This document shows positions 49,918 to 58,050 of a stretch of 64,000 bases of DNA, one piece after another. Position numbers and translations under genes: made by a program. The stretch's first letter is position 1. Each line of letters starts with the position of its first letter. Source of the stretch: Circinella umbellata (lineage: Eukaryota; Mucoromycota; Mucoromycetes; Mucorales; Lichtheimiaceae); NCBI GenBank assembly GCA_025093555.1, contig JAIWNF010000019.1:620001-684000 (forward strand), read 5' to 3'. Under the pieces are notes generated by a model. That model was not told where the DNA came from, searched no databases, and was given only the letters and a program-made list of their open reading frames with translations.

Positions 49918-50153
49918 ATAGGATAATTTTAAGCTCACACTATCCGGAGAATATAAAAAGTATAAATATGTTAAAATGGCATTGTAAAAGTAACTTTTTC
50001 AAATCTCCATTTTTATTATTAAACTATATCATCGAGTCTCAAAGGATTTACTTTGTTCTTATTATTTTATTTCATTGTTGTCACTGTGCCCAATTCCATC
50101 CTTGAAAAATTAATTTTCATCATCGGATGTTTAAATATTTTCAAGAGCCAATC

Positions 50154-50206
50154 GGCAGGTACTAAAAGTCGTGCCATCCTGCTGTCGTGCCATCCCCCCA
50201 TGACTG
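50154..50206 (+). repeat. MULE-1 left terminal inverted repeat
   Basis: Pairs with 55095-55147 on the opposite strand; shared core AAAAGTCGTGCCATCCTG. Preceded directly by the 9-bp target duplication. Confidence 0.9.
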
Positions 50207-50297
50207 TGTTTTTTTTTATTCCGCTGTCTTCGTCGTGCCATTAAGCGTGCCTTACTATCCTGTCTCCCAACTACACGTTTCTATTAATTTCTAAAAA

Positions 50298-53200
50298 ATG
50301 ACAACAAAAATTGTAACTTATTTCAAAACACAATTCCCTAATGGCGATGTTACTGAAACATGTAATGATGTTGTATTTGATGAAGAACATGATCGGTATT
50401 GTAAATTTAATCTTGATATTGGATGGGCTATGAAAGGTGGTCATAGCAATCGTAGAGCGGACAAGAATGGTGATCGCATCCGCAAGTATGACCGTGTTTG
50501 CTGTGGCTACTTTACTTGTGAAAATGAAAATTGTAAAGTATACAATCTGCCAAGGCGCCCCCCAACTAGAAAGAACGCGGTCTGTAAAGAACTTAATGAA
50601 GGCTGTAAATCTTGTAGTGGAACACTCGCTCATAAACCTTGTCCAGCAAGAGTTGTATATATCTTTTCTAAGAAAGGGTGTACAATGACTCATATTAATA
50701 TGCATTCGCATGGCCAATATAGTCGAAAACATTTATCTATGGAACAGAATAATGCAATGGATAATTATGTGGAAAAGAATCCGACTTTGCGACCAAAAGG
50801 AGCTACTGTTGGTATTGATTCGAGAACAGGAACCATCATTTCATCCACTCGAGAAATCGATCCAATTCCTGGTAATCGTGAGAGAACTAGATATGAGACA
50901 AGAAAAGCCAAGGAACGCATGAATATAACCTCTTTAGATGATGATCCAGTCAAGCCATTCCTGAAAATTAACAACGCATACCCTGGATATCTAACTGCTG
51001 CTAGTGTATTACCAGATTTGGTCTTGATTTCTTTCCGGGGACCATCAATGCCTAGCTGTGCTAGAATTAGTATGTTTCCAATTGCTACAGATGTCACATA
51101 TAAAGCAGTTGGTGGTTATTATCTTTGCTCTTCTCTTATTTACTCTGTTGAATCTCGAAGACACGTTGTGATATTTCAGGCGATTCTTGATAAATTAACA
51201 GAAGCATCATATCAGCATTATTTTACAACACTCTTTTCTGTTTACAAAATGGACTTTAACGACGATAATAAGCAACTCGGATTTATTCAAGACTTTAGTC
51301 TCAGTCAGTTGAATGGTTTTTTGAAAGCTTTTCGGATTTATTCAGGAAGAGAAGAGCACGAAGGTCTTAGATATCTCAAGGGTTGCTATATGCACTGGAT
51401 GCAAAGTGTTCAGCGCATCAGTAGCAATCATGATGTTGTCTTACCAGAAAACCGACAACGTTTTTTAAATTTGACCTATACCATTCGCGTGACACGTAGC
51501 GATGCTTCTTTAAATCAATGCGTAACTATCATGATTAACGAATTTCCAGGATCAAGACGCTGGATTAGATGGTGGTTACAACCAAAAATTCGTAGTATGA
51601 TTTTCAATTCTCAATCATTGATGAAGCCAGCACTACGATCCCACTCTATTAGGACGGAAATGCATGTGAGAACTACCATAGTATTCTTTACCGCAATATG
51701 CCTAAAAAGCTGCCTTTAATACCTGCACTCAATTGTTTACTAAAGTTTGCTGCCAATGATGAAGAAGATATTAGACAGTTTTATGAACACGGTATACTCC
51801 CTACATACAATCGTACTCGGCGTATACAGCCAAATAGTCGTCTTGGGTCTACATACTATCAAGCAAGTGATAGTAGACCCCCAGATCATAATGCTGTTCT
51901 TTTTGCTGAGGAAAGTGAAGATGAAAGAGAAAATGATGAACCGCAACATATTCAACAATTAGAACTTCCAGTCGCTCGTCTCATGGTGCCTAATAATGAT
52001 GATATGGAGAATGTATGTGACAATGAGATAGGCATGGCTCATATTGTTGAAAATGACTGCCTTACTTTGCAAGCTGATGATCCAATTGTTGTGAATATAT
52101 TGGATTCACTTGATGATAATGAACTTGAGGAAATTCCGTCCGAACTCATGTCAATTTTCAATGGGAATAATCAATATAATTTTCATAATGATGTTCTCGA
52201 GGAATGCTCGGTACAACAACAAGATGATAATAGTAGTAAATTATCAGAACGTGGTGCAATTTTTAGTGGTGAAGATCAAGGTAGCATCTATAATAAAGTT
52301 GAAGAGGAATTGCGACCACATCAAGATAACGAGAATGATCATATAGTTGAAGGACGTGATAATAGTATGAATATCGATAATAATAATAATAACGCACATA
52401 GTCCACAATCAATAGTTGAACAGTTACCACCATCACCGGCAGATAGCATTGATTTTGTTATTAATCGAGTAAATAGACTAATCCGAGAAGCAGACGAGCT
52501 CCTCCCTCCACGTGACGGCGATAATCAGGAATCTACATTTGTTTTTCCTCTTGCAAGAGACATTTATGATTTGCGTTTAAATCCTTGGAATAGTAATTCA
52601 TGTTACATTGATGCAGCTGTCGAACTACTATGGCATTCCGTCATTCCAGTGATTAATATTTACAACCCAACATCTTTTAAAATCGAAACAGAACACGAAC
52701 CTGGAAATCCTCTTGATATATTGATGAAAGAAACCTACAATATGTCTCAAAATTGGACACAACGCTTCGATGGTTCTAATCGAATGCGAAATTATGTATG
52801 GTCCAAATTTTCAGAACAATGGGCATTTCATAAAAATCATACGGCAGATGTAGCTTCATTCCTAAGCATTTTGCTGTCAAATATGTCACAAGACTTTAAC
52901 TCTAACTTCCGAATTGAGACAGAACGTGTACATATGTGCAACAAGGACCCTACTCATTGTCGATTTTTTTCCAAGAAGTTTGATGGTCTGACTGGAGAAG
53001 TTGAGCCAAGAGAAAGCGTACTTTTTTGGTCAGTACGACATATCGATCACTATAACTTGACAAAATCTTCCGAGCGGTTCGTTGATGCATTGGTATCATC
53101 CATTGTAAATCATAAAGTGAGCAAATGCGAGGTTTGTAACAGTCCGTGTACCAAATACGAAAAAAATGCCGTTGTTTCTATTTATTCATGATCCAAGTTC

Positions 53201-53627
53201 AAATCGTTCGCCAAGTAGTAAAGAATATGGCGCACGGATATTATTTCCATATGAATTTCGCCTGATTGATGGTTCAGTCTATCAGTTACATGGTGTTATT
53301 TCGTCGACCAGAAGAGATGGGTTTCATTTTATAACAACAGGATTAATACCAGGTGGCAGGCCTTTTATAGGTGAAATCGACAATATGAGGCAAGAAATAA
53401 ATGTGCTTCATGAACCATTATCCTATAATGATAGTGATGCTGCAAAAACATTTGCAAATATAAAATACCCCGTTATTGCATGCTATCAGAAGGTAATCAG
53501 AAAGCTCGTTGATGCTGACATGACAGGTGTTGTGTTTGATGATATTGAAATGATGGAAGTAGCTGAGGAGGAGCTTGAAGATCATCTACTTAGAAGTGAC
53601 GTATATGTAAAAAATCATAGTATGTAA
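50298..53627 (+). pseudogene. MULE transposase with GCM-like zinc domain and C-terminal ubiquitin-specific-protease-like domain; two frameshifts
   Basis: Three consecutive open frames (50298-51719, 51698-53191, 53166-53627) read as one ~1,110-codon protein if two single-base shifts, near 51660 and in an A7 run at ~53162, are allowed; they cancel in total length. N-terminus: Cys/His cluster (CCGYFTC, KPCPARVVY, THINMHSHG) like WRKY/GCM1-type DNA-binding domains. Middle: MULE DDE core with D in PIATDVTYKAV, D in FIQDFSLSQLN, the GCYMHW block, and the catalytic E in NACENYHS, which lies just after the first shift. An acidic linker follows. C-terminus: NSNSCYIDAAVELLWHS (Cys box), CNKDPTHC and CEVCNSPC (zinc finger), and YQLHGVISS with DGFHF (His box) in the order of USP-type peptidases. 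As the sequence stands no single frame makes the whole protein, hence pseudogene. Confidence 0.75.
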
Positions 53628-55094
53628 AACATAGATATAGTATAATATATTGTTATCCATCTTTTCAGGTTTTACACTCTTCTTTCCCTCTCTCTATTTT
53701 ATTCATTTTTTTATCTTATATTTCTTATCTTTTAGTATCATACATCCTTATTATTATCATTATTATCAGTTTTATCACAATTATTTTCTTAACTTAAATA
53801 AATATCAGAAGTTTTACAATAAATAATACATAATTAAGTTTACCTCTATCCAATAAGATTTATCTTTATTTTCTATTAAAAATGAATAAAGATATTGACA
53901 CTCTTAGCCTATTTACATTTTTTTTATGATATCTATCTCTGAATAAGTCAGGTTCATACTAACTTTCTTATATTTTTTACTTTCGTTGCCTTTTTTAAAT
54001 AAGTATACTGTAGAAATATAAAAAAAATGCTAAGCACCAATCATCAATAGCTGACGTGGTAGATTACTTTAATAATTAAATGTTTATATATAATAGTGCA
54101 AAATATTTGTTAATATTGTTGGCAAATTACTAAAATTTTTTGGGAAACTTTTACACGCAATCATCTTAATGGATAGGTATCAGATATATATGTAGGATAT
54201 CTTACTCAGTTTGGTTTTGGACTATAGTGAGTGCAATTAGATAATAATTTCAAAAGTTCAGTTAGTAGAAAGAAAAATAAAGATAGCTGAAATCATAAGG
54301 AAATAAAAAATATAAAGAGAATTACCAATATTGTAATCAGATATTACGTATCTAATCTATAAAAAGTAAATAAGTACAGAAAAAATAAAATTGTTACGTA
54401 AAACAGAAATGAGTTAAAAGCTGGACAGGAATGATAGGCTATTATATATAAAATATGAAAGTAATCTAATAATTTAAGCAAATGATAGAATTTAGAAGTA
54501 TAAATGATCACGAATTAACTTCATTAATTTATTGAAATTATATGAAGATTAAAATAATCATCGTACATTTCATTATAAATAGAGTATTTAATGCGGAAAG
54601 CTTATTATAAGCTAATATATTTTCATTTCCCAAAGAAAAAGTAATGATAAAAATATAAATACTATTAGTAGTAAAAGAAAGCCATAAAATGATATGTAGG
54701 CTGACTATTAGAAACGAAAAAAGATGAATACAATGTATGTACTTTAAGATAAGCTATTTTCAAATTATATTTAGAACTGTAACAAAGTATAAGTCAACAT
54801 AACATATATTGTGTGTCTTCTCTTCATGGTACCTCCATTAATTAAAAGTATTGCATATTTAGATAAATAGATTTTGAGTAAAGATAGTCATTGTTCGCTC
54901 TCTGGTACATAAGATTAACAACAGGTATATGCATATATAATCTATTATTATTAAATTTTTATATGTCAAAATTATTAAAAAAAAAAAGCACCAGTACACT
55001 TTTATCTTTTTTATGATCCATAATATGGTAGATTTAACACAGAGGATGGCAGGATAGTGAGGCACGACCAAAGACCGCGGAGTCAAATTAAAAG
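53628..55094. other. Non-coding right part of MULE-1
   Basis: About 1.47 kb of AT-rich sequence between the transposase gene and the right terminus. No open frame with a recognisable motif; it may be filler or a lost second gene. Confidence 0.5.
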
Positions 55095-55147
55095 CAGTCA
55101 TGGGGGGATGGCACGACGGCAGGATGGCACGACTTTTGGTTGCTGTC
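55095..55147 (-). repeat. MULE-1 right terminal inverted repeat
   Basis: Reverse complement matches 50154-50206 at 48 of 53 positions. Followed directly by the second copy of the 9-bp target duplication (55148-55156). Confidence 0.9.
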
Positions 55148-55239
55148 GAGCCAATCCACCTCGTCGGGGGGCTGTTCTATTCATCAGGAAAAATTATGTC
55201 ATTAATTCTTTGAAAAATTTCAATTACAGTTTCCGGCCA

Positions 55240-55410
55240 AAGTCGCACCTAAAAAAATCTTTTAAGCCGCACTTAGTAAAAAATAAAAAAAAATCTCTAA
55301 GTCCCACTTGGTAAAAAATAAAAAAAAATCTCTAAGTCCCACTTGATAAAAAATAAAAAAAAATCTTTGTCCCACTTAGTAAAAAAAAAAAAAAATAATC
55401 TCTAAGTTCT
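55240..55410. repeat. Subterminal ~35-bp tandem repeats in MULE-2
   Basis: Four to five units of the form AAGTCCCACTTGGT followed by an A-rich spacer and ATCTCT; two neighbouring units starting at 55264 and 55299 are exactly 35 bp long. Located 40-230 bp from the left terminus. Confidence 0.8.
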
Positions 55411-55465: not shown

Positions 55466-58015
55466 TTATTGGCGGGAAGGACGTGCCTGAGGATTAATTA
55501 TTTTTTCAATTGTAGTATATGTTTCTTTTTGTGAATTAACTATGGATTCTATTTGTTCTGAAGTGAGTTTTGATAAATTTGTTGATAATAAATAGTCTAT
55601 TTTTTTTATTTTTCTCCAATTCAACAAGAAGATCTTGTCGATGTTGCTGTTGTTGTGACAGCTCTGATGCTGCTGCTGTTGTGTATGATGATGATGATGT
55701 TGCTGGTGCTACTAAACCACTACCTGCAAATGATGATGGTGATAACGATGTTGTTGTTGCTGGTGCTGTTGATGATAATGAAGTTGATGATGATGATAAT
55801 GATGATGATACTGAAGTAATGGCAGCTTGTTGACGTGTTATTATATTTAAATTTGTATGAATACCAACAAGGAAAATATGTTTACAAGCTTCTTGGCGCA
55901 ATCGATAATCCATACACGTACATGTGCCAGTGACACTCCCATTTCCCGAATCTTCAAACTTCAATATATAAACAATACGACTAGTAAATGAACGACAAGT
56001 AACCTATTATTGCCGTTATATTATGAGTTATCATAACATATTAAATGCGAAAAAATCAGCAAGATAAAAAAAATTATATACATACATGGTCTTCAAAAAC
56101 ATTAATCATTGAAAGTGCTTTTTGCTCTGGAACTTCATTTGCTAACTTTTTTCGTTTTCGAGTCTCACAGATGCAGTACTCTTCTTGACATTAAATAAAA
56201 CTTGAATGATATGAGAACGATAATCACGCTCGACCAACTGCGACAAAACATAAATGACCCGATCAACACGATGATTTCGAGAATAAGGAAGGTATTTGCT
56301 TTTTAATTTAGAGTGCCAGCTTTCTATCAAATTGTTTGTGTGAAACGTAACTTCCTACGATATGTATATGCATTAATATCGAATACAGAAGAAAAAAAGC
56401 TCGATAGGAATAAGAACAAACATACCTTTCTCCAAGCTTTACACCACAAATGCCTCTTGTCAAACCAATATTCCAACATATATATATAGAGATCAAAATA
56501 CTTGCTTCTCCACTTCATTACAAATTCATACCAAGCAACATAAAAACCAACAAACGTTGTAGAATACATCAATGAATCAAGCGACGTTAGAGCTTCTTTT
56601 CTTAGTATTTTCGATTCTGTTGTTGATGATGATGTTATCTAGAATCGATTTATTAGAATCCAGAGTTTATAAGGGTAATATGTTTAGTATAATGCAATTA
56701 CCTTTGATTTAATATTTTTGATCCAGGCACTTGATATGCCAATGGCATAAAAGAACTTGAACATGATTACCATAGACTTGACGAATACTATTGATTTTAA
56801 CTGGACTACAATCAATCATAATACGATCAGGAATATAATGTACACAATCTCGAAGCCATCGAAGCCAAATTTGTAAATGTTCGCTGTCTTCCTTGTCCGT
56901 GATCATATATGCAAGTGGATAACCTTGACCAGTAACATCATTCTTAGCAACAATAGAAAATAAATATGAATCACTAGTGGGTTTTACAATTGATTTACAA
57001 GTCTTGTGTGTAGAATCCATACAGATTTCTTTTGAATTTAATAACAACTAAAAATATTGATATACATGAATAATTATCCAATGACATAACATGTTTTATC
57101 AACTCAAATAATACAAATAATCATTACTCACCTGTGCTTGTCGTGGTGATATCCATGATCTAACAAATGATGGCTGTGTGATATGTTTCAAAGTATGATA
57201 ACCTTCTTTGTTCAATTGTTCAAGCCATAAACTGATATTTTGCTTATCAATATGATCTTTCTTTGCTAATCTTGACTGTTCATTGGCGATGATGTTGATG
57301 ACATGATGAGGTTTTACAAGTGGAGCATTTGGCAACGGTCCTTCATTATTCTCAACCTTTCATTATATGTTCGTACAAGAATAATTAATTACTCAAATAT
57401 ATAAAACACATATACAATATACACAATGCATACCTTTCTAAGTTGTTCATCTGTAAGTCGCAAATAATCTTGTATTTTATCCCAATCTAAGCCGTTTTCA
57501 ACATGTTTTTTAATCCAGTCGCGAAGTTCAGAGGGAAGTTGTGATCGTACTGCATCAGAAATTTCTGTTGGATCGTGTCGTTGATGTTGCCAATGATATT
57601 TAACTTTGATTTTGCCACTTGTCAAGTATTGAACATGATATTTAGCAAGGCAGTTACATTTTAAAGATTTTTTGACACCAGTTCGTCTTTTTTTGTTGGG
57701 TGGGAGGTCGGTGAATGAAGAAACAGAAGTAGATGATGAGCTAGAAGTTACGTGTCGTGAATGGTCACAATAATAAGTAATACTTTGCTGAACTGTTCTG
57801 GGACGATCGGCTGAACTCAGGCGTGCATCTGAAGTCTTGGAAATGGAGATGTAGGAGTTGTTGGTGATGAAGTTGGCATGTTGCTTTGGGTTTGTTTTAA
57901 CCCATTCTTCAAACTCATTGTCGTTGTTAAATTCTTCTTCTACTATATTTGTTGTATAGTTAGGAGAAACACGAATAAGATACCCAAGATCTTCAGATGC
58001 AGAGGCCGTTGTCAT
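55466..58015 (-). pseudogene. MULE transposase with SWIM zinc finger (MULE-2), multiple exons, frameshifted
   Basis: Reading from ATG 58015: exon 1 (57434-58015) with a Cys/His domain (YYCDHSRH, LKCNCLAKYHV, YHWQHQRHDP) of the FAR1/FLYWCH-like sort; exon 2 (57132-57356); exon 3 from 57047 with catalytic D in ICMDSTHKT, D in IMIDCSPVK and the LLCHWHIK block; further exons with catalytic E in NNLIESWHSKLK; and a SWIM motif CTCMDYRLRQEACKH. Frame breaks occur right after CHWHIK (~56733), before RKRKKLANEV (~56180) and in an A-rich run (~55610), after which a plausible C-terminus ends at 55466. It is therefore a decayed copy. Domain order matches canonical MULE transposases and differs from MULE-1, which has no SWIM motif that I can see. 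Confidence 0.75.
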
Positions 58016-58016
58016 G

Positions 58017-58017
<1 letters not shown>

Positions 58018-58050
<33 letters not shown>
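58018..58050. repeat. (TAA)n microsatellite upstream of the MULE-2 gene
   Basis: About ten uninterrupted TAA units directly upstream of the MULE-2 start codon. Confidence 0.85.

What the first reader, a model, noticed from the sequence alone, without database searches (positions are those of the whole stretch)
50154..55147. Complete Mutator-like transposon whose transposase carries a ubiquitin-specific-protease-like C-terminal domain
The element has 53-bp inverted termini and an exact 9-bp target duplication, both typical of MULEs. Its gene joins a GCM/WRKY-like zinc domain, a MULE DDE core and a C-terminal region with a Cys box (NSNSCYIDAAVELL), a CxC/CxxC-type finger and a His box (DGFHF), in the order seen in USP deubiquitinases. 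MULE fusions with Ulp1-type SUMO proteases are known from plants; I do not recall a described MULE-USP fusion in fungi. A deubiquitinase-like module on a transposase could protect it from turnover or act on host chromatin. The domain identity is inferred from short boxes, not from a search.
Basis: partly seen in the sequence, partly recalled or inferred. Interest (0 to 1): 0.82.

Follow-up and report, generated by a model that had tools for sequence, protein, structure and literature searches.

The report
Jumping gene carrying a deubiquitinase-like domain
A fungal "jumping gene" encodes its cutting enzyme fused to a module that looks like enzymes that strip ubiquitin tags off proteins, and many relatives in the same genome carry this module or a different one of similar kind, hinting that removing such tags helps these elements move.

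The parts
50145..50153 (.). left 9-bp target site duplication GAGCCAATC
50154..50206 (+). left terminal inverted repeat, 53 bp (48/53 match to right; weaker similarity to about 50230)
50298..51719 (+). transposase frame 1 (from first ATG): GCM/WRKY-like zinc region plus most of the DDE core
   Evidence: relatives aligned
50415..50714 (+). GCM/WRKY-like zinc region (Cys and H-x-H residues); Pfam GCM hits are in relatives L072, L057, L046 (and L071 below cut-off), not in the window copy
51090..51092 (+). first presumed catalytic Asp (TDVT), invariant in 7 aligned cores
51291..51293 (+). second presumed catalytic Asp (DFS), invariant in 7 aligned cores
51384..51395 (+). C-x2-H motif of the core (KGC..H)
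51653..53191 (+). transposase frame 2: presumed catalytic Glu region (NACE), acidic linker, N-terminal part of the USP-like domain
51668..51670 (+). presumed catalytic Glu (NACE; NA[VI]ESFH in relatives)
52530..53550 (+). USP (C19)-like domain, split by the second frame break (limits approximate)
52601..52603 (+). presumed catalytic Cys of the Cys box NSNSCYID
53121..53627 (+). frame 3: C-terminal part of the USP-like domain
53325..53327 (+). presumed catalytic His (DGFHF)
53379..53381 (+). presumed third triad residue Asp (IDNM)
55095..55147 (-). right terminal inverted repeat
55148..55156 (.). right 9-bp target site duplication GAGCCAATC

Best explanation
It is a frame-broken copy of an autonomous Mutator-like DNA transposon of a fungus, probably of the Mucorales. 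The transposase is one multidomain protein: an N-terminal GCM/WRKY-type zinc domain (likely binds the inverted ends), a diverged MULE DDE core (cuts and joins, leaving 9-bp duplications), an acidic linker and a C-terminal USP-fold isopeptidase with a conserved Cys-His-Asp triad. Most likely the USP part is active and removes ubiquitin (or a ubiquitin-like tag) from the transposase itself or from proteins gathered at the ends, so that the complex escapes degradation long enough to transpose. Shown by computation: ends, TSD, domain identity, order, recurrence, triad conservation. Inferred: catalytic activity (about 0.75), substrate being ubiquitin rather than SUMO (about 0.65), self- or complex-protection as the benefit (about 0.45).
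Against: Window copy broken twice and its frame 2 is under the UCH cut-off. Whole-frame Pfam scans list no UCH for L069, L070, L071, L052, L021, and 13.2 bits (cut-off 23.9) for the C130 locus; none for L032; 2 of 6 members of A1 do not match UCH at E<=1; P0002 is below cut-off and P0003-P0005 have no UCH match. Profile search of PDB sequences with A1 found no USP. The USP model has mean pLDDT 64.8. The core fails Pfam MULE and hhalign to a Pfam-positive MULE; its own model is poor (pTM 0.49) with no PDB match at E<=0.001. Of 4 other copies or derivatives with both flanks read, 3 show no TSD (L042, L047/L050, the small element in L072), and the L069/L070 TSD is unclear. 4 of 29 USP-like loci have no MULE core in reach. 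No activity data.
Confidence: 0.68

Rival explanations
1. The domain is a SUMO (or other Ubl) isopeptidase in the manner of animal USPL1, making these elements a USP-fold counterpart of plant MULEs with Ulp1 SUMO proteases.
For: USPL1-SUMO structures are ranks 2, 3, 4 and 14 of the Foldseek list; the Cys box reads C-Y-I-D where classical USPs have Asn at the last place (recalled; no call). MULE-Ulp1 elements are described (PMC2836005, passages).
Against: VIA ranks ubiquitin USPs first and lists no USPL1 among its 50 rows, which excludes nothing; Pfam Peptidase_C98 finds nothing in the genome, but its control also rang nowhere. USPL1 lacks the blocking loops (PMC8983731, parts 1-2 of 7 read); whether these domains lack them was not measured.
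Confidence: 0.2
2. The USP part is a catalytically dead scaffold, like the pseudo-hydrolase of PAN2, used for protein binding.
For: PAN2 pseudo-hydrolase is among the fold matches.
Against: Cys, His and Asp are invariant in 6 diverged members and the same boxes are present in the still more diverged C120 locus.
Confidence: 0.1
3. The DUB acts on host chromatin (for example ubiquitinated histones near the element) rather than on the transposase, easing expression or integration.
For: SAGA Ubp8 structures are among the fold matches, as are many USPs, so this is weak.
Against: No direct evidence either way; fold similarity does not show a substrate.
Confidence: 0.2
4. Passive capture: a host USP fragment was picked up by a MULE by chance and is carried along without function.
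For: Gene-fragment capture by MULEs is known in plants (Pack-MULEs; PMC6431247, passages).
Against: Same place downstream of the core in six diverged kinds and on two MULE lineages that hhalign could not align; triad invariant; amino-acid constraint in the one usable pair; present in annotated proteins of Circinella minor and of another genus, Lichtheimia.
Confidence: 0.03

Closest known systems
MULEs with Ulp1 (C48) domains in plants and animals
   Same: Mutator-superfamily transposon that encodes a cysteine isopeptidase (PMC2836005, passages: hydra, lancelet, Arabidopsis, maize, rice, melon).
   Different: Here the peptidase is USP/C19 (or OTU-like), not Ulp1/C48; the six Ulp1 matches in this genome are not part of these elements as far as seen (C130:539659 lies near one element and was not followed).
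Ginger1 transposons with OTU or Ulp1 C-terminal domains
   Same: C-terminal isopeptidase, with two kinds alternating among related elements (PMC2836005, passages).
   Different: Ginger1 has a Gypsy-integrase-like transposase, not a MULE core; no USP is mentioned for it in those passages.
Trichomonas vaginalis XP_001314237.1 (transposase_11 + Peptidase C19)
   Same: The only C19-transposase association that I saw in print (a remark in PMC2836005, passages).
   Different: Other transposase superfamily, a protist; no element described in that passage.
Helitron/Helentron elements with VTD or OTU deubiquitinase domains
   Same: Transposon-borne DUBs of different classes present besides or instead of one another; the authors suggest protection of proteins needed for transposition (PMC9741609, passages).
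   Different: Rolling-circle elements without a DDE transposase; VTD activity was assayed there, whereas nothing was assayed here.

Membership tests
Mutator-like (MULE) transposon superfamily | 9-bp target site duplication | tested here: met
   Window and C112 copy exact 9 bp; L071 9 or 10 bp; L042, L047/L050 and the small element in L072 show none; L069/L070 unclear
Mutator-like (MULE) transposon superfamily | terminal inverted repeats, often long | tested here: met
   48/53 in the window; arms of 137, 137 and 181 nt in L069, L070, L071
Mutator-like (MULE) transposon superfamily | DDE core with C-x2-H between second D and E | tested here: met
   D265, D332, C363 and H366 invariant in 7 cores; Glu follows in the 5 aligned cores that reach it (NAVES, NAIES, NGVEA) and as NACE in window frame 2. 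Motif definition recalled
Mutator-like (MULE) transposon superfamily | match to a MULE/Mutator transposase profile or fold | tested here: inconclusive
   No PF10551 match for this clade; Transposase_mut E 0.0021, 17.5 bits under the cut-off 21, for L049 only; hhalign negative; model too poor. The L026-type loci with USP do match PF10551 (up to 71.9 bits)
Mutator-like (MULE) transposon superfamily | N-terminal WRKY/GCM1-type zinc domain | tested here: met
   Pfam GCM over cut-off 25 in L072 (26.3), L046 (25.1), L057 (28.8), below it in L071 (23.5), none for the window copy; GCM-DNA structure 1odh is the top fold match of the L069 model, E 6e-3
USP / peptidase C19 | UCH profile match | tested here: met
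   L010 28.4 bits, P0001 30.3 bits over 23.9; genome search: C13, C146, C169, C158, C167, C133 over the cut-off downstream of cores. Not reached by window frame 2 (18.4 bits), nor in whole-frame scans of L069, L070, L071, L072, L052, L021, L032, P0002-P0005
USP / peptidase C19 | Cys-His-Asp/Asn triad in order | tested here: met
   invariant C33, H278, D296 in 6 members
USP / peptidase C19 | USP thumb-palm-fingers fold | tested here: met
USP / peptidase C19 | four-Cys zinc site in fingers | tested here: inconclusive
   two Cys invariant (C145, C208); full CxxC pairs only in some members
USP / peptidase C19 | deubiquitinase activity | not testable with these tools
   needs assay
USPL1 / peptidase C98 | C98 profile match | tested here: inconclusive
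   no PF15499 match in the genome, but the control also rang nowhere
USPL1 / peptidase C98 | absence of the blocking loops | not tested
   loops not measured on the model
OTU domain (in relatives such as C132) | OTU profile match | tested here: inconclusive
   phmmer to OTUD5 E 0.0013; Peptidase_C65 E 0.097; PF02338 does not ring at these places

The most novel reading that the evidence does not exclude
In these fungi an isopeptidase is a near-standard third module of MULE transposases, and its fold is interchangeable: USP in some lineages, OTU in others, at the same C-terminal place and never both. That would mean host ubiquitin (or Ubl) tagging is a general barrier to DNA transposition which the elements have overcome repeatedly by recruiting whichever deconjugating enzyme was at hand.
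Probability: 0.45. Interest if true: 0.78.

Novelty: new variant of a known kind. Interest (0 to 1): 0.62.

Why it matters
Transposon-borne isopeptidases have been noted now and then (Ulp1, OTU, VTD) but their role is largely guesswork. A genome where diverged MULE lineages carry USP-type and OTU-like modules in the same position, with a conserved triad in the USP type, is a natural experiment: it suggests that the activity, not one particular protein, is what is selected. It makes an open question (does ubiquitin-dependent turnover limit transposases?) directly testable, and offers a new group of compact USP-fold enzymes.

Tried and rejected
Separate genes lying next to each other: rejected for L070 (one 908-aa ORF) and L071 (one 856-aa exon). 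For the L026 type the USP follows the MULE/SWIM part across several stop-bounded stretches with GT-AG-like borders, joined only by inference. For C132 the OTU-like frame begins after a stop and may be a further exon or a separate gene. Introns or a programmed frameshift as the cause of the window's frame changes: rejected, because three sister copies align through both sites and differ there by frame-shifting indels. Ulp1 domain: PF02902 does not hit the element. Relatives in viral contigs: 12 pattern matches, none a relative. First protein search with the L070 USP region: 2543 candidates, none at E<=0.01. PDB sequence profile with A1: three matches to SRP receptor beta subunits only, E 0.03 and weaker. 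MULE core fold: model poor, no match at E<=0.001. dN/dS: 8 of 15 pairs had infinite dS and the others are near saturation, so only L015/L021 is used, as a rough guide. Papers: nine search listings (one search was on USPL1) showed no title or abstract start describing a MULE-USP fusion; two likely sources that I recall, Muszewska 2017 and Babu 2006, are not held, so absence from print is not shown. Passages of PMC6446971, PMC12062965, PMC10799480 and PMC7928374 searched for protease or ubiquitin terms gave nothing on this. USPL1 is absent from the 50 VIA rows, which excludes nothing.

Full report
OBSERVATION. The element at 50154-55147 has an exact 9-bp duplication, GAGCCAATC, on both sides, and inverted ends with 48 of 53 matching positions (65 of 77 further in). 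In the same genome (unnamed, 50.8 Mb, 210 contigs) the window copy has long sister copies at C146, C13 and C143 (96-98% identical where aligned), and shorter internally deleted derivatives that keep the transposase up to about residue 316-318 and the right end, or most of it (C112, C68, C137, C178). Of the 41 matches to the left 200 bases (87 candidates, 40 scored), 28 are further places that match only the terminal 70-110 bp, several with left and right ends about 0.6-0.8 kb apart. The C112 derivative has its own exact 9-bp duplication, ATGTATGCC; L042, L047/L050 and the small element in L072 show none.

STATE OF THE WINDOW COPY. The gene runs through three overlapping frames: 50295-51719, 51653-53191, 53121-53627. 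The three sister copies compared differ from the window by frame-shifting indels at both sites, so the two breaks are private to this copy (decay or assembly error). The sister copies have further indels of their own. A 447-aa annotated protein of Circinella minor, P0004, reads through the region of the first break and ends inside the USP domain.

RECURRENCE. Clustered hits give 29 USP-like loci; 25 lie within 3.5 kb downstream of a MULE core on the same strand, no MULE locus has one upstream or on the opposite strand, and uniform placement would give 0.15. The 4 without a core in reach are at C1:1433007, C139, C176 and C22. Counts of repeats by this tool are lower bounds (one search scored 90 of 161 candidates). 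In a search by the UCH family itself, which also finds host USPs, 6 of 27 grouped loci are downstream of the 66 cores. Two kinds of MULE carry the domain: the window's broad clade (18 of 66 loci) and a canonical Pfam-MULE with a SWIM-like CxC...CxH motif (7 of 76 PF10551 loci). L071 (C190) is a complete element: inverted arms of 181 nt at 94%, TSD GCTTTGTTG (9 bp; 10 bp if the right end is set one base earlier), a first frame with the zinc domain, an inferred 107-bp intron at 2120-2226 with GT and AG borders, and an 856-aa second frame with core and full USP. L070 has core and full USP in one 908-aa ORF but lacks the start of the zinc domain; L069 (922 aa) has the zinc domain but stops before the His box. 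In public proteins: Circinella minor P0002-P0004 and an unnamed ENA protein P0001 (4 hits among 3163 candidates), and Lichtheimia hyalospora P0005 (1 hit among 7642 candidates), 874 aa, with zinc region, core and the Cys half of the USP domain in one predicted protein; Pfam finds nothing in P0005. L015 and L021 USP domains keep 62% protein identity at saturated synonymous sites.

THE OTU-LIKE ALTERNATIVE. C132, a relative with a core 39% identical to the window's, has no USP match; about 35 bases after the stop of its MULE frame begins a 221-aa frame that resembles OTUD5 (E 0.0013; Peptidase_C65 E 0.097; PF02338 silent at these places). Searching with it gives 95 clustered loci, 41 of them just downstream of a MULE core: 20 of 66 loci of the window's broad clade and 21 of 76 PF10551 loci (two lists, not merged); one locus of each list has an OTU-like match upstream or on the opposite strand; no MULE locus has both USP and OTU-like. 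The remaining 28 and 48 loci have neither within reach; several of the 28 are fragments or deletion copies. Whether OTU-like frame and core form one protein was not shown for any of them.

MECHANISM. From established knowledge, the zinc domain should bind the ends and the DDE core cut and join with a 9-bp stagger. The USP part has the residues a working isopeptidase needs. That two unrelated isopeptidase folds appear to occupy the same place argues that the activity is useful to the element. A parallel with Helitrons and herpesviruses, where VTD and OTU domains stand in for one another, is drawn in PMC9741609 (passages), whose authors suggest protection of proteins needed for transposition from the proteasome. 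I favour the same here, as inference; a SUMO-directed enzyme and a chromatin role are live rivals.

NOVELTY. Isopeptidases on transposons are known: Ulp1 on MULEs, Ulp1 or OTU on Ginger1, and a remark on a Trichomonas transposase_11 with C19 (PMC2836005, passages). I saw no description of MULE-USP in nine search listings, in a library that lacks two likely sources. Hence: new variant of a known kind.

Noticed in passing
window 55500-58020, minus strand: A second, different MULE gene beside the element: Pfam MULE 31.2 bits at 56733-57026 and a SWIM-like CxC...CxH motif near 55880-55920; apparently several exons.
   Followed up: partly
window 55245-55395: Short tandem array of a ~35-bp unit directly right of the element (family D1).
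   Followed up: no
G000:C130:547035-547732, C143:300706-301400, C157:54189-54988, C167:779403-780078: Roughly 0.7-0.8-kb MITE-like elements; left ends 89-91% and right ends 82-83% identical to those of the window element; possibly mobilised by this family.
   Followed up: partly
L073:858-1523 (G000:C132): OTU-like frame downstream of a MULE core related to the window's; 95 clustered loci with similar sequence in the genome.
   Followed up: partly
G000:C130:539659-540159: Weak Ulp1 (Peptidase_C48) match, 26.7 bits with 4 stops, about 1.5 kb upstream of a MULE-USP element.
   Followed up: no
L064 (G000:C167): A MULE-USP copy whose frame changes in the poly-Glu linker between core and USP.
   Followed up: no
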